Shown: one piece after another, positions 1,396 through 46,242 of the stretch | Layout of the letters: every line of letters starts with the position of its first letter | Numbering within the stretch: the stretch's first letter is position 1 | Source of the DNA: Clostridia bacterium | GTDB taxonomy: Bacteria > Bacillota > Clostridia > Christensenellales > Borkfalkiaceae | Reading direction: 5' to 3' | Assembly (NCBI GenBank): GCA_017504795.1 | Contig: JAFVQM010000014.1 | Location: forward strand, 18,975-82,974 | DNA length: 64,000 nucleotides | Translations under genes and position numbers: made by a program | The notes under the pieces: model-generated | The model's input: only the letters and a program-made list of their open reading frames with translations | The model's database searches: none | What the model was told of the DNA's origin: nothing

Positions 1396-1743
1396 ATGAA
1401 CGCTATTAAACCTGTTTTACTACTTGATAAAAAAACTCAAAATATGATAGAAAGTTACGTTCCGTCTGACGAAACTCTCGAAGAACTAGTAAGTTTTTTT
1501 AGTATTTTTTCCGATTTGACAAGACTGCGTATGATATCGGCGTTAGCAATTAGCGAAATGTGTGTAACCGATTTATCTACGCTACTTGAAATCAACCAAA
1601 CCACCGTTTCTCATCAATTAAAAACCCTGCGCGATATAGGTGCCGTAAAGTATCGCCGAGATGGTAAAATTATTTTATATTCGCTTAAAAACGAAGTTAT
1701 AAACGAAGTGCTACTTAAAGGCGTAGAGTTTCTCGGCTACTAA
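1396..1743 (+). CDS. ArsR/SmtB-family winged-helix repressor
   Basis: The 115-residue protein has the ArsR helix-turn-helix at about 58-80 (LSTLLEINQTTVSHQLKTL) followed by a beta wing (VKYRRDGKIILYSL). Metal-sensing ArsR proteins usually carry a CxC in the helix before the HTH (ELCVCDL); here the text is EMCVTDL, with only Cys56, so the classical As/Cd site is incomplete. The C-terminal helix also lacks the SmtB His/Glu pattern, so the ligand is open. The start is set by AAGGGGGAA seven bases upstream. The next plus-strand sequence is the repeat cluster, which begins at its own stop codon. The divergent partner is the small hydrophobic protein. Confidence 0.85.
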   Translation: MNAIKPVLLLDKKTQNMIESYVPSDETLEELVSFFSIFSDLTRLRMISALAISEMCVTDLSTLLEINQTTVSHQLKTLRDIGAVKYRRDGKIILYSLKNEVINEVLLKGVEFLGY

Positions 1744-1862
1744 GGCGTTATTTCGGGTATTATGCGTCGTTTCTACTTAGCCGATAGACTTCGTTGACCA
1801 ACAAGGTCTAACTCAGCCTATCGCCTTCGTGAGCCTAGCCTAATACCCAAACTAACGCCTTA
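1741..1862 (+). repeat. palindromic intergenic repeat, copy A
   Basis: This 122-bp element begins at the stop codon of the ArsR gene. The outer arms TAAGGCGTTA / TAACGCCTTA are perfect, then GGGTATTA / TAATACCC, then CGATAG / CTATCG, then the central GACC-AACAA-GGTC (1796-1808). By eye it differs from copy B (46021-46142) at about 12 of 122 positions with no gaps. The 3' tail GTGAGCCTAG...TAACGCCTTAA matches the family tail. Confidence 0.85.
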
Positions 1863-1869
1863 ATTCAGG

Positions 1870-1997
1870 TTTTAAGCCCTTATAAATTTCGTTAAAGTGC
1901 GTTTCTGCCGTCGCCGTGTGTCTGCAATGACCAACAAGGTCGCGCACCCTTTCAAAAACACAAACGCTTCGTCTAACTCGTTTCTAAGGGCTTAAAA
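1870..1997 (+). repeat. palindromic intergenic repeat, copy F
   Basis: This tandem neighbour starts 7 bp after copy A. It has perfect 13-bp outer arms TTTTAAGCCCTTA (1870-1882) and TAAGGGCTTAAAA (1985-1997), and the central GACC-AACAA-GGTC at 1929-1941 preceded by TCTGCAAT as in copy C. The orientation is the same as copy A. Confidence 0.8.
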
Positions 1998-2030
1998 TAC
2001 GGGTTTTAATAGGCTTTGTGTTAAGATAAC

Positions 2031-3939: not shown

Positions 3940-4969
3940 GATAGGCAACGTCACGATAGGCGGTAACAATAAAATTGCCGTTCAGTCTATGACGAATATT
4001 AAAACTGAATACGTAGATAGGGTAGTTTCTCAAATACTCGCGCTGGAAGAAAACGGTTGCGATATAGTTAGGGTTGCCGTGAAAGACGAGATGGACGCGT
4101 TATCCGTTAAAGAAATCAAAAAACAAGTATCTTGCCCGATAGTTTGCGATATCCATTTCGACTATAAACTTGCGATAAAATCTATTGAAAACGGCGCTGA
4201 TAAAATAAGGATAAACCCCGGCAATATAGGTAGCGAAGAAAACGTTAAAAAGGTTGCCGAGTGCTTAAAATATTACGGCGTTCCCGTTCGCGTTGGCTCT
4301 AACACGGGTAGCGTGGAAAAAGAATTTTTGAAAAAGTATGGCAAAAACGAAGTTTCACTCGTGGAAAGTGCGCTTAAAAACGTTTCAATACTTGAAAAAT
4401 ACGGCGTTCAAGATATCGTTATTTCGGCAAAGGCATCGTCAGTACCGTTGACCGTTAAAACGTATAGATACCTAAAATCTAAAACCGATTACCCCTTGCA
4501 CCTTGGGGTTACCGAGGCAGGCACCTACGAAAGCGGAGTGATAAAATCAAGCGTAGGGATAGGCTCGCTACTGCTTGACGGAATAGGAGATACGATAAGA
4601 GTAAGTTTATCGGCAGACCCTGTTTTAGAACCTTTAATTGCAAAGAAAATTATCCGTTCTTGCGGGCTTGATAGTAACTATTGCGAAGTGGTTTCTTGCC
4701 CGACTTGTGGCAGAACTGAGTACGACTCGATAGGGCTTGCAAACAAGATAGAAAAGTTAACTGCAAACATCAAAAAACCACTTAAAGTTGCAGTAATGGG
4801 TTGCGTGGTAAACGGCCCCGGCGAAGCAAAGGACTGTGACGTTGGCATCGCGGGTTCAAAAGATTACTGTGTAATCTTCAAAAAAGGCGAAATATACAAA
4901 AAAGTTCCCTTTGAAAATGCAGAAAAAGAATTTATAAGAGAGATAGAAGAAATTGCAAAATCCTTGTGA
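3926..4969 (+). CDS. ispG: 4-hydroxy-3-methylbut-2-enyl-diphosphate synthase
   Basis: This is an Fe-S enzyme of the MEP isoprenoid pathway converting MEcPP to HMBPP. The 347 residues are the short, two-domain bacterial form: TIM barrel (GADKIRINPGNIG near 90-102) and a C-terminal cluster domain with Cys258 and Cys261 (SCPTCGRTEYD), Cys293 (MGCVVNGPGE) and Glu300. All cluster ligands are present. It overlaps coaX by 14 bp and the PolC-like gene by 17 bp. In many Firmicutes ispG is directly followed by polC, which makes the truncation downstream notable. Confidence 0.95.
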   Translation: MKTVKIGNVTIGGNNKIAVQSMTNIKTEYVDRVVSQILALEENGCDIVRVAVKDEMDALSVKEIKKQVSCPIVCDIHFDYKLAIKSIENGADKIRINPGNIGSEENVKKVAECLKYYGVPVRVGSNTGSVEKEFLKKYGKNEVSLVESALKNVSILEKYGVQDIVISAKASSVPLTVKTYRYLKSKTDYPLHLGVTEAGTYESGVIKSSVGIGSLLLDGIGDTIRVSLSADPVLEPLIAKKIIRSCGLDSNYCEVVSCPTCGRTEYDSIGLANKIEKLTANIKKPLKVAVMGCVVNGPGEAKDCDVGIAGSKDYCVIFKKGEIYKKVPFENAEKEFIREIEEIAKSL

Positions 4970-6461
4970 CAAAGTTTTAGAAGCGGTAAAAAACTTTCTT
5001 GGTGGCACGGTTGATATAAGAATAAACTCAGCCGTTATAAAAAACGGGGAAGTTACCGTCAACTTAATATGCGACTCGGTAGTGAGTGAAGAAGATAGAG
5101 ATTTAATAAAGAGTTCGTTTGAAAACGAATTTTCCGCTATGCCGATAAATCTTAACTTTTCAAAGTCAATAGCCGATGCCGAAATTTGTAAAACTGCGGT
5201 TTTTAACTACTTGCAAACTCACTGTTTTTCGGTTGCTCACGCCATTGACAAAAATTCCGTTAAAATAATATCTGGTGGCAAAAAAATCAAGTATGAAATC
5301 GTCGTTTTAGACACCGTTAAGGAATACCTAGAAAGAACGGGGGTAATACCGTTACTTAACGACTTTTTACATAGAGAGTACTGTAACTTTTTTGAAGGGG
5401 AAATTCGCGCGTCGTCGCATGACGAAAGCGCCCCCACGCTTGAAGACGATAGCGTTTTAGAAAGTGACGTTTTAGACCTTCAAGTAAGAAAGGTAAAAAT
5501 GGCGGAAGTAGTTAAATTTTGTGACGACGAGTTTTACGATACCGCAACCTATATTCAAGACGGAAAGGAAGTTTTAGGTAAATGCTATTTTGCAGGCACA
5601 GTCGTTGAAAAAGAAGAACGTGTTAGCAAAAAAGGAAACACCTATTATAGGCTTACGCTTGACGATAAGTCGTCAAAAATATCTGGCAGTTACTTTACTA
5701 GTGACAAGCAAAAACTACAAAAACTTCAAAAGATTGACGTAGGTAGCGTAATAATTGCCCGTGGCGAGATGGACGAGTTTGGTGGTAGAACTAGTTTTAT
5801 AATAAAGGGCTATCATTTATGCGAGTTCCCAAGCGGATACAAGCCACAGTCACGCCCGTCAAAAAAACCGCCCGAAAAGTACACTTACGCTTTTCCAACC
5901 CCGTGTGAAACGAGTAAGCAAGACGATTTCTTTACGTCGTCAAACACCCTTCCTAAATGGCTTACCGAAAAGGAATACGTGGTAGTGGATATTGAAACCA
6001 CGGGAACTGACGTTACTAGTGATAAAATTACTGAAATCGGCGCGGTGAGAATTAAAAACGGAGTAATACGCGAAACTTTTCAAATTCTTATCGACCCCGA
6101 AGTTTCGCTATCTAAACGCATAGTAGAACTAACAGGAATAACCGACGAAATGCTCGTAGGTAAACCCAAAATTCAAGACGCGTATCCCGACTTTATTAAA
6201 TTTTTAGGCGACGCGGTTTTCGTTGCCCACAACGCCGACTTTGACTATCGCTTTTTGAAAAACGCAGGAAAACCCTTAGGGTATTTTGTTGAAAACGAGT
6301 GTGTAGACACGTTAGAAATTTCAAGAAAGAAACTCCCTTGGCTATCCAACCACAAGTTAAACACCGTTTGCGCTCACTTTAATATAGAATTCCGTCATCA
6401 CCGTGCGCTTAGTGATGCATTTGCTACTGCCGAGGCTTTGATTGAGTTAGCGAAACTTTAA
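4953..6461 (+). CDS. PolC-like protein reduced to N-terminal, OB-fold and 3'-5' exonuclease parts
   Basis: 502 residues. An N-terminal PolC-like region (about 1-170), a PolC-type OB domain (about 200-295, GTVVEKEERVSKKGNTYYRL) and a DEDDh exonuclease (about 341-500) are visible. The catalytic residues are intact: Asp346 and Glu348 in VVDIETTG, Asp429 in HNADFD, His482/483 and Asp488 in HHRALSDAF. The PHP domain and the whole polymerase/palm region of PolC (usually about 1400 residues) are absent, and no remnant follows. Position (ispG - here - rimP - nusA) is that of polC in Firmicutes. The start is a TTG at 4953 inside ispG; an upstream in-frame TAG rules out more. It may be a proofreading subunit acting with another polymerase, or the result of a deletion. 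The repeat cluster starts at its stop codon. Confidence 0.8.
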   Translation: MQNPCDKVLEAVKNFLGGTVDIRINSAVIKNGEVTVNLICDSVVSEEDRDLIKSSFENEFSAMPINLNFSKSIADAEICKTAVFNYLQTHCFSVAHAIDKNSVKIISGGKKIKYEIVVLDTVKEYLERTGVIPLLNDFLHREYCNFFEGEIRASSHDESAPTLEDDSVLESDVLDLQVRKVKMAEVVKFCDDEFYDTATYIQDGKEVLGKCYFAGTVVEKEERVSKKGNTYYRLTLDDKSSKISGSYFTSDKQKLQKLQKIDVGSVIIARGEMDEFGGRTSFIIKGYHLCEFPSGYKPQSRPSKKPPEKYTYAFPTPCETSKQDDFFTSSNTLPKWLTEKEYVVVDIETTGTDVTSDKITEIGAVRIKNGVIRETFQILIDPEVSLSKRIVELTGITDEMLVGKPKIQDAYPDFIKFLGDAVFVAHNADFDYRFLKNAGKPLGYFVENECVDTLEISRKKLPWLSNHKLNTVCAHFNIEFRHHRALSDAFATAEALIELAKL

Positions 6462-6582
6462 GGTCATATTTGCTAAATCTATCTGCGTTACTGCCGTCGT
6501 CGTGCGTCTGCAATGACCAAAAAGGTCTATTGCAACCACCCGTCTAGGCGAGCCTTGATATATTTGCAACTATGCCCTTAAT
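6459..6582 (+). repeat. palindromic intergenic repeat, copy C
   Basis: This copy begins at the stop codon of the PolC-like gene. The imperfect outer arms TAAGGTCATATTTGC and GCAACTATGCCCTTA pair. The central TGCAAT-GACC-AAAAA-GGTC-T-ATTGCA lies at 6511-6533. The tail GCGAGCCTTG...CCCTTAA is shared with the family. Confidence 0.8.
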
Positions 6583-6706
6583 TTAAGAGTTTATTTACGG
6601 CGCAATACTGCGTTACTGCCACAAAGTTGTGTCCGCCACAACCAAAAAGGTTAGTGCCGACCACACTTTGTGTCGAGCCTTGTCTTGCTTGCAACTAAGC
6701 CCTTAA
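6583..6706 (+). repeat. palindromic intergenic repeat, copy D
   Basis: This copy directly abuts copy C. It shows a long near-perfect inner hairpin: CACAAAG (6620-6626) with CTTTGTG (6666-6672), TGTG/CACA, and a central AACC-AAAAA-GGTT (6640-6652), where the usual GACC/GGTC pair has changed on both sides. The tail TCGAGCCTTGTCTTGC...CCCTTAA is the best match to the family consensus. Confidence 0.8.
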
Positions 6707-6723
6707 AGCAAGTTGTGAATAAC

Positions 6724-6756
6724 TTACGCCGTGCGTCTGCAATGATAAAAAGTTTC
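6724..6756 (+). repeat. partial copy of the palindromic repeat (E)
   Basis: TACGCCGTGCGTCTGCAATGA is nearly the left-centre of copy C (CGTGCGTCTGCAATGACC) but breaks off before the GGTC half and lacks the tail. It looks like a decayed third unit. Confidence 0.5.
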
Positions 6757-9225: not shown

Positions 9226-11796
9226 ATGGAAATTAAAAAAGAAGAAAAGAAAGAATTTAACAGTATTAAAAATTTATCCGTTATTCTCAAAGAGAATAAA
9301 AGCGCTCAAATAGTAGGCGATTACAAGGCTTTTCAAAAATCTATTGATAAAAAGATTAGTGAAAAGTTAAAGGCTATGCGCGCTAAAAAGGCACAAGAAG
9401 AGGAGGCTAAAAAGCAAGAAGTAGCCCCCGTTCTTTCCGCGCCCGAAGTGGTAGAACCTAAGGTTGAAGAAAAACCTAAAAAAGAAGAAGTTAAGGTCGT
9501 AGAGCCAAAGGTAGAACAAGCGCCTAAGAAAGAAGAGAAAAAAGAAGAGATTAAAGTTGTAGAGCCTAAGGTTGAAGAAAAACCGCAAGTTGTGGAAGAA
9601 AAGCCTAAAACTCCTACCATACAAAAAACGGATAACCCAAATATCGTTATTATCGACGGTAAAAGGGTTTTCGTACCCCAAAAGCGCGAATACGTCGCAA
9701 AAGACGACGGCAGGGGTAAAAACTTCGATAAAAAGCCTTCTAAACCTACGGGTGACAGACCGCAAAAGCGCGAGTACGTAGCGCCCGGCGATAAAAAGCC
9801 GTTTGCTCCGTCTATAAAGAGCGCTCCGCCGGCGTACGTTCCCAAGGAAAGCACTAAGCAACAAGGCAAGAAGAAAAACGAAAGAAATAATTACGACGAT
9901 AAAAAGGCTATCAATAAAAAGTCGCTTATCAAAGGTCAAGTATCTATTGACGATTTCGACGAGAATAAGTCTGGTTACAGAAAGATGAGAAAGGCGAAAG
10001 ATAAGCGCCAAGAAGAAACGACGTCGGGTATCAAAATTGATAGAGCGGTTATAAATAAGGAAATTATCCCCGTAAAAGAACTTTCTGAACTCTTAGGCAT
10101 TACCGCGGTAGAAATTACCAAACGCCTTTTCAAAGAAGGTATCTTAAAAACTATTAACGACTCTATCGACTACGATACCGCAGGCTTTATCGCGGCAGAA
10201 CTCGGCATTGAACTCGAACTCAAACTCGACAAGACCGCGGAAGACGTTTTAAGTGAAGGTTTCAAGGACGACGAAGAAGACGAATCTAAACTTATTAAGC
10301 GCCCACCCGTCGTTACCGTTATGGGTCACGTTGACCACGGTAAAACTTCACTTCTTGATAGAATTAGAAACTCAAACGTTACGGCAGGCGAGGCGGGTGG
10401 TATAACCCAACATATCGGCGCGTACACAGTTAACGTTAACGGTGAAACCGTTACTTTCTTAGATACGCCTGGTCACGCTGCGTTCACGGCTATGAGAGCG
10501 CGCGGTGCTCAAATGACGGATATTGCAATCATAGTAGTTGCGGCGGACGACGGTATTATGCCCCAAACTATCGAGGCTATTCACCACGCAAAAGCAGCAG
10601 GCGTAACTATTATAGTTGCGGCAAACAAAATTGACAAACCTACTTCGGATATCGAAAGGGTTAAAAAAGGTCTTGCCGACCAAGAAATTTTGGTAGAAGA
10701 ATGGGGTGGTGACGTTGCACTCGTTCCCGTTTCTGCAAAGACCGGTCAAGGTATAGACGAACTCTTAGAAACTATCGTATTATCCGCTGAAATGAAAGAA
10801 CTCAAAGCCAACCCCGACCGTATGGCTAAGGGCGCTATCGTCGAGGCGAAACTCGATAAAGGTAAAGGCCCCGTGGCTACCGTACTCGTTCAAAAAGGTA
10901 CGCTTAAAGTTGGCGACTACTTAGTTGCAGGCACTATCACGGGTAAAGTTAGAGCGATGGTTGACGATAAGGGTAGAAACGTTAAATCGGCAGGCCCGTC
11001 AATGCCCGTATCTATTTTAGGCTTAGAATCAGTTCCCAACGCTGGCGACAGTATATTTGCAGTAGAAGAGGCTAAACTCGGCGCACTCGTTGCAAGTGAA
11101 AGAAGAAATAAAGAAAGAGAAGATATGATTAGAGAACAACAAAAAGTATCGCTTGACGACTTGTTCTCAAAGGTATCTTCGGGTGACTTAAAAACTCTTA
11201 ATATTATCGTAAAAGCCGACGTTCAAGGTTCGGTTGAAGCAATTAAGCAATCGCTTACAGAACTATCTAACGACGAAGTTAAAGTTAGCGTTATCCACTC
11301 GGCAGTAGGTGCGATTTCGGAGACGGACGTTAACCTTGCGGACTCGTCAAACTCGATTATTATCGGCTTTAACGTTAGACCTGATAGCAAGGCAAAAGCA
11401 CTTGCTGAACAAAGCAAAATCGACATTAAATTATATAGAGTTATCTACGAGGCGATTGACGACGTTACCAAGGCGCTTAAAGGTATGCTTGCGCCCAAGT
11501 TTAGCGACGTTTATATGGGTAAAGCCGAAGTTCGTGAAACGTTCAAAATTACGGGTGTCGGCACGGTTGCAGGTTGCTACGTTACTGACGGTAAAATCGT
11601 TCGTAACGGCAAACTTAGAATTTACCGTAACGACGTTATGATTTGTGAAGGAAACGTACTTCAACTCAAACGTTTCAAAGACGACGTTAAAGAAGTTCAA
11701 CAAGGCTTTGAATGCGGTATGTCTATCGAAAAGTTTGACGATATTAAAATAGGCGACTTTATCGAGTGCTATATCGTGGAAGAGCAAAAGGCGTAA
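9226..11796 (+). CDS. infB: translation initiation factor IF-2
   Basis: 856 residues. Residues 1 to about 275 are a Lys/Glu/Pro-rich disordered arm with repeated [10 protein letters not shown]-like units. The IF-2 N-domain follows ([20 protein letters not shown]), then the GTPase: G1 GHVDHGKT at 367-374, G3 DTPGH, G4 NKID, then beta barrels and the C-terminal fMet-tRNA binding domain ([23 protein letters not shown]-like). The repetitive arm explains several long antisense frames here that are not genes. It starts 2 bp after the L7Ae stop and ends 3 bp before rbfA. Confidence 0.97.
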
Positions 11797-26644: not shown

Positions 26645-27922
26645 ATGAAACTCAATTATAAAAGAACAATACTCGTTGGTTTTGCATTTTTCTTAATTTC
26701 TGCATTTTGGCAAGCGTACGACAAAACTATTCCGCTTCTTATGACGTATAAGTTTGGTATGACGCAAACTCAGTCAGGTATAATAATGGCGCTTGACAAC
26801 GTATTAGCGGTATTTATGTTACCACTTTTTGGTGGGCTTTCGGATAAAGTTAAAACGAGATACGGTAAGCGTACCGTGTTTATCTTCTTTGGTACAATTT
26901 GTGCGATAATATCCTTTATTTTTATTCCGCTTATCGGAAATATGTGGCTATTTATCGGCGTATTGCTTATCACCTTACTTTCAATGGCAACCTTCCGTTC
27001 ACCAGCCGTTGCGCTTATGCCTGACGTTACCGTTAAACCCCTTCGTTCAAAAGGTAACGCAATTATAAACCTTATGGGTACGGCAGGTGGCTTGTTAGTG
27101 CTTGTACTCGGTATGATTATTACCGTTGGTGAAGAGCATATGGATAACTTCTTCCCATACTACATAGGCGTTTGCGGTATTATGCTAGTCGGCTTAATCA
27201 TCTTCCTTTTAACCGTAAAGGAAAACAAATGGGTTAAAGAAATGGAAGAAGACACCGTTAAGTACGGTATCGAAGACGTTGAAGAAAAATCTAATGATAA
27301 CGCAGGCAAAAAACTTCCTAAGGATAAACTTATTTCGCTTTTACTTATTTTAGGTTCGGTTGCGCTTTGGTATATGGGCTATAACGCCATTACTTCAAAA
27401 TATTCCTTATACGCAGATAAAGTACTTAAACAAAGTTACGACTTAACGCTTTTAATCGCACAAGCTGGCGCGATAGTAGCGTATATCCCAGTTGGTATGG
27501 TCGCATCTAAATTCGGTAGAAGAAAGACAATACTTGCAGGTGTTGCTATGCTTGCAACCGCGTTCTTTATCGCTATATTTATGACCGAAAATAGTAGCCC
27601 GATATTTATGTATATATTATTCGCTATTGCAGGTATAGGCTGGGCAACCATTAACGTAAACTCATTCCCGATGGTTGTAGAACTTGCTAAATCTGGCGAT
27701 ACCGGTAAATATACGGGCTGGTATTACACCGCGTCTATGTCGGCACAAGTATTAACGCCTATTTTATCGGGTGCAATTATGGATTTAGCAGGAAATATGA
27801 GCCCGCTATTCCCGTACGCATCAATTTGCGTAGCGCTTGCGTTCGTTACTATGTTCTTCGTTAAACACGGTGATAGCAAGCCCGAAACCAAAAAGTCCGT
27901 TTTAGAAAATTTTGACGATTAA
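26645..27922 (+). CDS. MFS transporter, sugar/cation symporter (SLC45-like)
   Basis: 425 residues, about 12 membrane segments. The loop 2-3 motif GGLSDKVKTRYGKRTVFI is typical of MFS and GPH-like sugar carriers; AFFLISAFWQAYDKTIPLLM begins TM1. A charged central loop (roughly 200-225) splits two halves. The substrate is unknown. AGGGGGT precedes the ATG. Its stop codon is directly followed by repeat copy G. Confidence 0.85.
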   Translation: MKLNYKRTILVGFAFFLISAFWQAYDKTIPLLMTYKFGMTQTQSGIIMALDNVLAVFMLPLFGGLSDKVKTRYGKRTVFIFFGTICAIISFIFIPLIGNMWLFIGVLLITLLSMATFRSPAVALMPDVTVKPLRSKGNAIINLMGTAGGLLVLVLGMIITVGEEHMDNFFPYYIGVCGIMLVGLIIFLLTVKENKWVKEMEEDTVKYGIEDVEEKSNDNAGKKLPKDKLISLLLILGSVALWYMGYNAITSKYSLYADKVLKQSYDLTLLIAQAGAIVAYIPVGMVASKFGRRKTILAGVAMLATAFFIAIFMTENSSPIFMYILFAIAGIGWATINVNSFPMVVELAKSGDTGKYTGWYYTASMSAQVLTPILSGAIMDLAGNMSPLFPYASICVALAFVTMFFVKHGDSKPETKKSVLENFDD

Positions 27923-28048
27923 TTTTAAGCCATCATAAACGGCGCAATGCTTTGTTACTTCGATTTTTTATCACCTCGATGACCAAAAGGTCTATCTCTG
28001 CGCTAAAAAATCTTGTGCCTCGTCTTGCTTGTTTCTAACGGCTTAAAA
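27923..28048 (+). repeat. palindromic intergenic repeat, copy G
   Basis: This copy starts at the base after the MFS stop codon. Outer arms TTTTAAGCC (27923-27931) and GGCTTAAAA (28040-28048) are perfect, an inner stem is GATTTTTTA / TAAAAAATC, and the centre is GACC-AAAA-GGTC (27981-27992). The tail GTGCCTCGTCTTGCTTG...CTTAAAA matches the family. It fills the gap to the convergent spmB gene. Confidence 0.8.
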
Positions 28049-45282: not shown

Positions 45283-46023
45283 ATGTCAGGTCACAGCAAG
45301 TGGGCTAATATTAAAAATAAAAAGGCAAAAACCGACGCGGTTAAAGGTAAAATTTTTACCAAACTCGGTAGAGAACTCGCCGTTGCTGCAAAAGCGGGGG
45401 CGGATCCGTCAACCAACTCAAAACTTGCCGACGTTATTGCGAAAGCAAAAGCGGCAAATATGCCTAACGACAACATTACTAGAAGTATTAAAAAGGCAGC
45501 CGGTGAACTCGGCAACGTTAACTATGAAGTTAAAACCTACGAGGGTTACGGCATAGGCGGTAGCGCGGTTATCGTTAAAACCCTTACCGACAACGTTAAT
45601 AGAACGGTAGGTGAAGTAAGGCATATTTTCGATAAATACGGCGGGAATATGGGAACTACCGGCTCGGTGTCGTATATGTTTGAAAATTCTGGCGTTATAG
45701 TTATTGAAAGAACTCCTACGCTTGACGAAGATACCGTTATGGAAATGGCGCTTGAAGCAGGCGCTGACGACGTTGTTACCGAAGAAGACGTTTTCGAAGT
45801 TAAAACTTCGCCTGCAAGTTTCTCGCAAGTGAGAAAATATTTTGAAGAAAAGGGCGTTGAACTTGCCGAAGCCGATATTATGATGGTACCTAACGATAAA
45901 ATTACTTTATCTGCCGACCAACTTATATCCTTTAACAAAATGCTTGACGCGTTTGACGATAATGACGACGTGCAAGATGTTTATCATAACGTTGAACTTC
46001 CTGATGAAGAAGACGAAGATTAA
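45283..46023 (+). CDS. yebC: YebC/PmpR family transcriptional regulator
   Basis: 246 residues starting MSGHSKWANIKNKKAKTDAVKGK, with the YebC core GYGIGGSAVIVKTLTDNVNRT and an acidic C-terminus. AAAAGGAG RBS; 1 bp after the methylase stop. Members act as transcriptional regulators or translation factors. Its stop codon is the first base triplet of repeat copy B. Confidence 0.94.
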   Translation: MSGHSKWANIKNKKAKTDAVKGKIFTKLGRELAVAAKAGADPSTNSKLADVIAKAKAANMPNDNITRSIKKAAGELGNVNYEVKTYEGYGIGGSAVIVKTLTDNVNRTVGEVRHIFDKYGGNMGTTGSVSYMFENSGVIVIERTPTLDEDTVMEMALEAGADDVVTEEDVFEVKTSPASFSQVRKYFEEKGVELAEADIMMVPNDKITLSADQLISFNKMLDAFDDNDDVQDVYHNVELPDEEDED

Positions 46024-46142
46024 GTCGTTATTTCGGGCATTATACTTCGTTTCTACTTAGTCGATAGACTTCGTTGACCAACAAGGTCTAACTCAGCCTA
46101 TCGCCAAAGTGAGCCTTGTCTAACACCCAAACTAACGCCTTA
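46021..46142 (+). repeat. palindromic intergenic repeat, copy B
   Basis: 122 bp, gap-free match to copy A (about 12 differences by eye). It begins at the yebC stop codon. Arms TAAGTCGTTA / TAACGCCTTA, inner CGATAG / CTATCG, centre GACC-AACAA-GGTC. Confidence 0.85.
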
Positions 46143-46152
46143 ATTATCGCTT

Positions 46153-46196
46153 AGTAAAGGTTTGGAGTCTTGTTTTACTCGCTTCTAAGCCCTTAA
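46153..46196 (+). repeat. partial copy of the palindromic repeat (H)
   Basis: The tail GGAGTCTTG...CTTCTAAGCCCTTAA of the family is present, with an AGTAAA / TTTACT pair, but the central GACC/GGTC hairpin is missing. It follows copy B directly. Confidence 0.55.
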
Positions 46197-46210
46197 TAAT
46201 AGTTGAAATT

Positions 46211-46242
46211 AACTTCCGTTTGATTAAAGCGGAAGTTTTTTT
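46211..46242 (+). terminator. terminator downstream of yebC repeats
   Basis: AACTTCCG (46211-46218) / CGGAAGTT (46230-46237) plus TTTTT. Confidence 0.75.

What the first reader, a model, noticed from the sequence alone, without database searches (positions are those of the whole stretch)
1741..1997. Dispersed palindromic repeat family of about 120-128 bp with covarying stems
Six full copies (1741-1862, 1870-1997, 6459-6582, 6583-6706, 27923-28048, 46021-46142) and two partial ones (6724-6756, 46153-46196). All share a centre GACC-AAMAA-GGTC (AACC-AAAAA-GGTT in one copy) and a tail GAGCCTTG...CTAAGCCCTTAA. Inner stems differ in sequence but remain paired: CGATAG/CTATCG (A, B), CACAAAG/CTTTGTG (D), GATTTTTTA/TAAAAAATC (G), TGCAAT/ATTGCA (C). 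Outer arms are 9-13 bp perfect in copies A, F and G. Base-pair changes that keep pairing point to a selected fold rather than drift. It does not match a repeat family I can name.
Basis: seen in the sequence. Interest (0 to 1): 0.85.

Follow-up and report, generated by a model that had tools for sequence, protein, structure and literature searches.

The report
Mobile DNA hairpins at gene ends
A family of about 150-letter non-coding DNA hairpins is scattered through the genomes of some ruminant-gut bacteria, sitting almost exactly at the 3' ends of genes and nearly always facing the same way as the gene and as DNA replication, a strictness that points to an unusual way of spreading.

Summary
Rfam, phage and plasmid searches gave nothing. 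The unit is a 125-nt imperfect hairpin plus a ~26-nt tail. Pairing is strongly selected (516 doubly changed cells against 158 in shuffles), but the better-folding strand is the complement of the sense strand, so the fold looks like DNA. First copies begin at the stop codon of the upstream gene (-14, -4 or +1 to +6), or after a terminator T-run or RNase P RNA. At gene ends they are in sense and on leading-strand genes: 60 of 579 leading against 0 of 172 lagging. In 31 of 31 own-genome arrays the copy nearest the gene is full; 41 of 49 later copies lost their 5' side. Orthologous genes are re-occupied by different members. No Y1 transposase or integron integrase, and in 8 of 9 genus genomes no reverse transcriptase, was found. 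Best reading: a non-autonomous, single-strand-folding mobile element aimed at gene 3' ends; enzyme unknown.

The parts
1740..1865 (+). full copy (type 2 stem CGATAG/CTATCG), starts at the TAA stop codon of the ArsR-like gene 1396-1743
   Evidence: R1 114.7 bits; stop 1741-1743; ArsR-type HTH; 97% over 123 nt to G000:C7:25888
1872..1997 (+). full-length chimeric copy: type 1 left arm, type 3 right arm, joined at the apex
   Evidence: R1 100.7 bits; sequence and fold
1998..2030 (+). 3' tail of the unit (GGGTTTTAATAGGCTTTG...)
   Evidence: extended HMM match 1867-2030
6458..6582 (+). full copy (type 1), starts at the stop codon of the PolC-type exonuclease gene 4953-6461
   Evidence: R1 113.1 bits
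6583..6708 (+). full copy (stem CACAAAG/CTTTGTG, apex AACC/GGTT), tandem to the previous one
   Evidence: R1 106.6 bits
6709..6725 (+). 3' tail of that unit
   Evidence: HMM match 6581-6725
6730..6745 (+). 16-nt left-arm remnant (CGTGCGTCTGCAATGA)
   Evidence: read by eye, equal to 6501-6516; not found by the profile
27925..28048 (+). full copy, begins 2 nt after the stop codon of the MFS transporter gene 26645-27922
   Evidence: R1 100.5 bits; gap +2; MFS; orthologous sites filled in G003, G005, G006 and empty in G004
46020..46145 (+). full copy (type 2), starts at the stop codon of yebC 45283-46023
   Evidence: R1 115.3 bits; YebC; empty in G005 and G007
46165..46233 (+). 5'-truncated copy (3' arm and tail) directly behind the full copy; its end overlaps an intrinsic terminator at about 46211-46242
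   Evidence: HMM positions 103-173; terminator read by eye

Best explanation
This is a new family of non-autonomous mobile DNA elements. Each unit is a 125-nt imperfect hairpin followed by a ~26-nt tail.

SHOWN. The fold is selected, and the bottom strand (complement of the sense strand) is the better-folding one by prediction. Units start almost exactly at gene 3' ends, in sense. At gene ends, in the stretches examined, they occur only behind leading-strand genes. Sites are polymorphic between species, and the same gene is re-occupied by different members. In the own genome the copy next to the gene is full and its downstream neighbours have mostly lost their 5' side.

INFERRED. The unit spreads as DNA, through its folded bottom strand, into the 3' ends of co-directionally replicated transcription units. 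Its 5' junction is made at TAA of a stop codon or at TTAA/TTAT after a T-run; its 3' end joins downstream DNA loosely. A resident hairpin is broken near its apex and a new full copy is laid down from the gene side. That leaves half-hairpins behind and keeps the family alike by turnover.

NOT KNOWN. The enzyme. It could be host replication and hairpin-repair functions (SbcCD-like cleavage and template switching; recalled, not searched) rather than a transposase.
For: Copies and range. Covariation: 95.1% of cells paired, 516 doubly changed cells against 158 (sd 11) in shuffles, 0 of 500 reaching; sliding the partner drops pairing to 29-37%.

Strand: 1x1 mismatches in Watson-Crick-only folds of 108 copies are C-U 237, A-C 65 but G-U 5 on the + strand, which is G-A and G-U on the bottom strand (15 against 5 distinct column pairs). 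With DNA parameters the bottom strand is more stable in 108 of 108; the mean gap is 6.2 kcal against 1.7 in shuffles.

Placement: 60 of 579 leading against 0 of 172 lagging gene ends (p=1.6e-7), gaps only -14, -4, +1..+6 within the -16..+10 examined. 72 first full copies: 58 at stops, 8 after T-runs, 6 other. RNase P RNA, 5S rRNA and a T-box leader by Rfam. One orientation on each of 14 contigs with two or more copies, 73 copies. It flips in G031:C4 with gene strand and GC skew, dnaA at 149.8-151.1 kb.

Turnover: window sites filled in some relatives, empty in others. Of 111 own genes with an ortholog in the fetched DNA, 17 are occupied, 11 of these also in a relative; of the 94 unoccupied, 1 (p=3e-10). 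Yet in 14 of 14 shared pairs another own-genome copy is closer than the orthologous one. Nearest copy is in the own genome for 48 of 52.

Arrays: first copy full in 31 of 31; later copies full in 8 of 49.
Against: No mobilising enzyme was found: Y1_Tnp 0 of 9 genus genomes, RVT_1 only in G001 of the genus, integron integrase 0 of 37 over cut-off. Other transposase classes were not searched.

On the modelled pairs themselves the raw count is G-U 159 against A-C 45. 108 of the G-U are one invariant U-G column pair and 36 lie in a poorly aligned inner helix; without these three pairs it is 15 against 40. Between near-identical copies single changes give A-C 16 and G-U 10, a mild bias only. The RNA-parameter advantage of the bottom strand (96 of 108) is mostly compositional.

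Occupancy is conserved across genera, which host function or old insertion would also give. Stems change less than loops between close copies (0.035 against 0.082 per site, 7 compensated pairs), so resident copies may still be under selection. No target-site duplication could be defined, and no close filled/empty pair was available. In relatives truncation is less one-sided: 25 5'- and 6 3'-truncated copies, and only 14 of the 25 follow another copy (the profile was trained on own copies). G006:C3:38079 breaks the orientation rule, G006:C51:33646 follows no gene end or T-run, and G006:C51:20-40 kb has negative GC skew although its copies are on +.
Confidence: 0.5

Rival explanations
1. Host-functional 3'-end RNA element. 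The hairpin is transcribed at the end of core genes and tunes mRNA stability, processing or termination; copies are kept by selection and homogenised by gene conversion.
For: Sense orientation and stop-codon adjacency in 60 gene-end copies; core genes such as rplA, rplQ, valS, clpX, tpiA, pta, yebC, dnaK and GAPDH in relatives; occupancy conserved across genera; strong covariation; stems change less than loops between close copies.
Against: The sense strand folds less well than its complement, and its 1x1 mismatches are C-U and A-C instead of G-U. About nine of 72 first copies lie after terminators, outside the upstream transcript. One abuts RNase P RNA. Only 60 of 300 leading unit ends carry one, in stretches chosen for holding copies. 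Presence is patchy. Lagging-strand genes have none.
Confidence: 0.22
2. Ordinary MITE moved by a DDE transposase that targets TTAA, with position and orientation set afterwards by selection against harm in compact intergenic regions.
For: Inverted ends TTAAG...CTTAA; in several empty sites the gap between stop codon and terminator is only a few nucleotides, so neutral space is scarce; high within-genome identity, up to 97%.
Against: A palindromic target gives no orientation, yet 0 of 172 lagging gene ends are used, and only 2 have the far end of a copy close by. The left tetranucleotide varies (TTAA, CTAA, TTAT) while the right CTTAA is nearly constant. One-sided truncation in arrays is not expected. 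DDE transposases were not searched.
Confidence: 0.15
3. SINE-like retroelement: the RNA is reverse transcribed and inserted by target-primed synthesis, giving 5'-truncated copies.
For: 43 5'-truncated copies (by definition reaching model position 130 or beyond) against 1 3'-truncated copy on 498 kb; sense orientation at RNA 3' ends.
Against: No RVT_1 in G000 or G002-G008 (genomes incomplete). Truncated copies lie behind another copy's 3' end (39 of 43), not alone at gene ends. The sense RNA is not the better-folding strand.
Confidence: 0.06
4. attC-like recombination sites of an integron-type system: bottom-strand hairpins right behind genes.
For: Gene-end placement, sense orientation, and the better-folding bottom strand lying on the leading-strand template, as PMC11023631 describes for sedentary integrons (passages).
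Against: No integron integrase over cut-off in 37 genomes. Host genes are dispersed core genes and structural RNAs, not an array of cassettes. R-box motifs are not in the attC order (consensus recalled).
Confidence: 0.05

Closest known systems
ERIC / IRU (127-bp enterobacterial MITE)
   Same: About 125 nt, dispersed, non-coding; can act on the upstream transcript depending on its orientation (PMC2229807, passages)
   Different: Different host phylum; no sequence comparison made here. This family is in sense behind leading-strand genes, starts at the stop codon, has a tail and 5'-truncated arrays, and its stems come in exchangeable paired types
REP/BIME elements and RAYTs; CGTC-tagged REPs
   Same: Palindromic hairpin repeats in high copy; CGTC REPs also apparently lack a dedicated transposase (PMC3733652, passages)
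   Different: REPs are 20-40 bp (abstract) with a GTAG or CGTC tag; here 125 nt, no fixed tag, no Y1 transposase in the genus
attC sites of sedentary chromosomal integrons
   Same: Bottom strand folds and lies on the leading-strand template (PMC11023631, passages); sites stand directly behind genes (recalled)
   Different: No integrase over cut-off, no cassette array, hosts are core genes, a 5S rRNA gene and RNase P RNA
Group IIC introns
   Same: Insert in sense at intrinsic terminators (recalled; search listing only)
   Different: No Rfam match, no RVT_1 in 8 of 9 genus genomes, most copies lie before the terminator
bcr1 of the Bacillus cereus group
   Same: About 155-nt stem-loop repeat with mobility (recalled; search listing)
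   Different: Unrelated taxon; sequences were not compared here

Membership tests
REP/RAYT system | 20-40 bp palindrome with fixed GTAG tetranucleotide at one end | tested here: not met
   125-nt hairpin; terminal bases vary
REP/RAYT system | Y1 (IS200/IS605-type) transposase in the genome | tested here: not met
   PF01797: 0 of 9 genus genomes, own 0; genomes 84-94% complete
CGTC-tagged REP | unpaired CGTC tag at one end | tested here: not met
   CGTC near the 3' end is part of a variable paired stem (GGTC, CGCC, CGGC...)
classical MITE | terminal inverted repeats | tested here: met
   outer helix of 9 modelled pairs, 93.7% of cells paired
classical MITE | target-site duplication | tested here: inconclusive
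   left TTAA/CTAA/TTAT against nearly constant right CTTAA; only distant empty sites
ERIC | sequence similarity to the 127-bp consensus | not tested
   no ERIC sequence was fetched
integron attC | integron integrase in the genome | tested here: not met
   TIGR02249 over cut-off 0 of 37 genomes
integron attC | bottom strand is the folded substrate | tested here: inconclusive
   predicted folding only: lower DNA energy in 108 of 108; recombination not testable
integron attC | R boxes RYYYAAC ... GTTRRRY at the ends | tested here: not met
   ends read by eye in A1; motif consensus recalled
group II intron / retroelement | reverse transcriptase in the genome | tested here: not met
   RVT_1 absent in 8 of 9 genus genomes, own included
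known RNA family | Rfam match | tested here: not met
   window at gathering score: 0; 1700-2040 at E<=5: 0

The most novel reading that the evidence does not exclude
A class of bacterial mobile element whose insertion is aimed by transcription and replication themselves. Units are laid down at the 3' ends of co-directionally replicated transcription units (stop codon, terminator, RNase P RNA end), possibly by template switching when a fork meets RNA polymerase, using host functions instead of a transposase. Each new copy overwrites the 5' side of its predecessor through breakage at the hairpin apex.
Probability: 0.22. Interest if true: 0.92.

Novelty: new variant of a known kind. Interest (0 to 1): 0.76.

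Why it matters
Small dispersed hairpin repeats are common in bacteria, but how those without a known transposase move is an open question (PMC3733652 raises it for CGTC repeats). This family has unusually strict rules: gene 3' ends, sense, leading strand, fixed 5' junction, and one-sided truncation in arrays. Such rules can be tested in the laboratory and narrow the mechanism sharply. If the transcription-replication reading holds, it would be a transposition route not set by a target sequence or a dedicated enzyme. If the host-function reading holds instead, it would be a genus-wide 3'-end device on core genes.

Tried and rejected
Rejected or weakened. (a) Chance local duplication: 75 copies and very strong covariation. 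(b) Integron cassettes: core host genes, no integrase over cut-off. (c) Target-primed reverse transcription: first favoured because of 5' truncation, weakened when RVT_1 was absent from 8 of 9 genus genomes and truncated copies proved to lie behind other copies. (d) Sense 3'-UTR RNA: weakened by the mismatch and strand tests and by copies after terminators. (e) IS200/IS605 Y1 mobilisation: no Y1_Tnp in the genus. (f) A longer autonomous copy: among own 3'-truncated matches the only clear one (G000:C6:31640) is a remnant in front of a terminator; the six in relatives were not followed. (g) Phage or plasmid carriage: no match; 9 viral-contig pattern hits gave at best 16.6 bits with R1.

Rows dropped and limits. 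One search aligned 49 centres: 47 of the 48 pattern hits (C28:15664 left out, judged by eye not a copy) plus 2 window copies; 37 full ones went into A1. A2 holds the 108 matches with E<=1e-10 from 66 chosen sources. rest on stretches that I mostly chose because they hold copies, so occupancy rates are upper estimates. 'Leading' means the strand carrying most copies on that contig (in G031:C4 split at 131 kb). The sign of GC skew agrees for 10 of 10 own stretches. Of the twelve G006/G031 stretches other than G031:C4:80-152 kb, which holds the flip, eleven agree. ORFs were called by a simple longest-ORF rule. The pooled table counts the same own gene up to seven times; one search counts each once. 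In one search, 6 of 72 first copies fell in 'other'; by eye and one is the RNase P RNA end, one a terminator, two are stop codons missed by the rule, and two remain unexplained.

Literature: the searches listed no paper that I recognised as describing such a family; most listed papers were not opened. Passages seen: PMC3733652, PMC2229807, PMC11023631; others only as search listings.

Full report
WHAT IS THERE. The six full copies and the 46165-46233 fragment are confirmed. The genome (1.40 Mb, 83.6% complete) holds 48 copies of the apex motif with at most one mismatch, against 2 for the reversed control, and 75 matches to the covariance model R1. A more sensitive profile over 498 kb of it finds 53 full, 43 5'-truncated, 1 3'-truncated and 2 other matches at E<=0.05. 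No Rfam family matches.

ANATOMY. A unit reads TTAA-GCCSTTA...[inner stem]...GACC-AAMAA-GGTC...[inner stem]...GAGCC..TAASGNC-TTAA, followed by a ~26-nt tail (about AAGTTRTAATAGGCTTTGAG in this species; in G006 a different one, CTTTCAACTCAACTTTGAGTT, by eye). It folds into one long hairpin broken by regularly placed 1x1 mismatches. Inner stems come as several paired types. Some copies are chimeras of two types joined at the apex, for example window 1872-1997.

THE FOLD IS SELECTED, AND MOST LIKELY AS DNA. On 108 copies from eleven genomes (sources counted) 95.1% of cells pair. Nineteen of 23 pairs have changes on both sides, and 516 cells are doubly changed against 158 in shuffles, 0 of 500 reaching. 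The alignment was fitted to R1, which favours its structure, but sliding the partner by 1-3 columns drops pairing to 29-37%. In Watson-Crick-only folds the + strand 1x1 mismatches are C-U (237) and A-C (65), with G-U only 5, spread over 15 against 5 distinct column pairs. On the complement these are G-A and G-U. Against this, the raw count on the modelled pairs is G-U 159 and A-C 45. 108 of these G-U cells are one invariant U-G column pair and 36 are in a poorly aligned inner helix; without those three pairs it is 15 against 40, with 2045 Watson-Crick cells. With DNA parameters the bottom strand is more stable in 108 of 108, by 6.2 kcal on average against 1.7 in shuffled sequences; with RNA parameters in 96 of 108, by 6.0 against 4.3, mostly compositional. 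The bottom strand is not the one in the upstream gene's transcript, so the selected fold is most simply one of single-stranded DNA.

PLACEMENT. On the fetched stretches of G000, G006 and G031, 60 of 579 leading-strand gene ends and 0 of 172 lagging-strand gene ends carry a sense copy within -16 to +10 nt (Fisher p=1.6e-7). For ends of transcription units the figures are 60 of 300 and 0 of 120 (p=4e-10). 'Leading' is the strand with most copies on the contig. The distances are -14 (7), -4 (25) and +1 to +6 (28), and nothing else in that range. At -4 the TAA of the element's first TTAA is the stop codon. Of 72 first full copies, 58 are at a stop codon, 8 after a terminator T-run and 6 elsewhere. 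By eye and the last six are one RNase P RNA 3' end, one terminator, two stop codons missed by the ORF rule and two unexplained. T-run cases include a T-box leader and a 5S rRNA gene. Hosts over curated cut-offs include rplA, rplQ, valS, clpX, tpiA, pyrH, prs, pta, ilvE, galE, yebC, and GAPDH, dnaK, ldh, dnaA and rplA in relatives.

REPLICATION DIRECTION. All 73 own copies on the 14 contigs that hold two or more share their contig's orientation; two more contigs have one copy each. GC skew has the matching sign in the ten own stretches. In G006 one of 80 copies departs from its contig's orientation, and G006:C51:20-40 kb, rich in genes of the other strand, has slightly negative skew although its copies are on +. 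In G031 the orientation flips once, in contig C4, between 86 and 146 kb, where gene strand and GC skew also flip, with dnaA at 149.8-151.1 kb.

MOBILITY AND TURNOVER. The four occupied window gene ends were read in syntenic stretches of relatives. The MFS-gene end is filled in G003, G005 and G006 and empty in G004. The ArsR end is filled, weakly (33 bits), in G003 only of six. The exonuclease end is filled in G008 only of seven. The yebC end has a copy behind the terminator in G004 and none in G005 or G007. Several empty sites show stop codon and then terminator. Over 264 reciprocal-best pairs, 14 ends are filled in both genomes, 18 in G000 only, 1 in the other only and 231 in neither. Counting each own gene once, 11 of 17 occupied genes are occupied in a relative against 1 of 94 unoccupied (p=3e-10); G006 alone gives 8, 5, 1, 53 (p=2e-6) and G031, another genus, 3, 1, 0, 20 (p=0.002). 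The same genes are therefore used again. Yet at the 8 ends shared with G006 the partner copy ranks 1, 8, 11, 13, 15, 17, 19 and 24 of 24 in similarity. At two of them the microsite differs: stop codon in one species, after the terminator in the other. For 48 of 52 own copies the nearest of the 108 is in the own genome, which is also the best sampled. The positions last; the occupants change.

ARRAYS. Of 50 own clusters, 31 hold several copies. In 31 of 31 the copy nearest the gene is full, while 41 of 49 later copies are truncated from the 5' side (first against later, p=3e-15). Thirty-nine of 43 truncated copies lie directly behind another copy's 3' end, and 21 of 43 begin at model positions 50-79, around the apex at 68-76. 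In relatives the pattern is weaker (14 of 25; 6 3'-truncated copies). This is what one expects if a new unit is laid down from the gene side over a resident hairpin broken near its apex. The mechanism is inferred.

ENZYMES. Y1_Tnp is absent from all nine genus genomes, RVT_1 from eight of nine, and integron integrase over cut-off from all 37 genomes searched. Incomplete genomes limit these negatives, and DDE, serine and other transposases were not searched.

RANGE. R1 matches occur in 9 of 9 genus genomes, 13 of 28 other genomes of the family and 1 of 24 genomes of other families in the order. Named carriers are MAGs of Clostridia, many from goat, sheep, yak and deer gut, and Christensenella sp. 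UBA3770. No phage or plasmid record matches window 1735-2010.

JUDGEMENT. The family belongs to the broad kind of small non-autonomous palindromic repeats, as a new variant with unusually strict placement. The mobile DNA-hairpin reading is preferred (0.5). A host-functional 3'-end element remains possible (0.22), chiefly because occupancy is conserved and stems change more slowly than loops between close copies.

Noticed in passing
window 4953-6461 and downstream: Where polC would be expected (before rimP and nusA; gene order and names recalled) there is only a 502-aa protein with OB and DEDDh exonuclease domains of PolC type and no polymerase domain. Matches over about the same 500 aa are in G001 and G003-G008.
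   Followed up: partly
L232 (G000:C30 near 132.2 kb), L251, L108, L237 near 660-810, L256: A second short repeat (..CGCAACGCGC..AAGCGTTRACCTAAAGGTAAACGCT..AAGCGGTYGCTCC..TTTCGGGAGCCC) lies inside or beside units of this family, and once near a reverse transcriptase ORF in G001. Of these loci, L251, L108 and L256 were scanned whole with no Rfam match to it.
   Followed up: partly
G006:C51:33646-33772 and G006:C3:38079-38202: Two full copies that follow neither a stop codon nor an immediate T-run; the second also runs against the contig's orientation.
   Followed up: no
window 9446-9603: Imperfect repeats at 48-60 nt spacing inside the open frame 9226-11796 encode a lysine/glutamate-rich stretch (translation by eye).
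   Followed up: no
G000, behind several units (e.g. C30:92.0 kb, C14:28.9 kb, C19:36.7 kb): Intrinsic terminators behind the units share a similar stem (AACTCTCGTTTGAATAAAGCGAGAGTT), as if terminators are themselves a repeated family (by eye).
   Followed up: no
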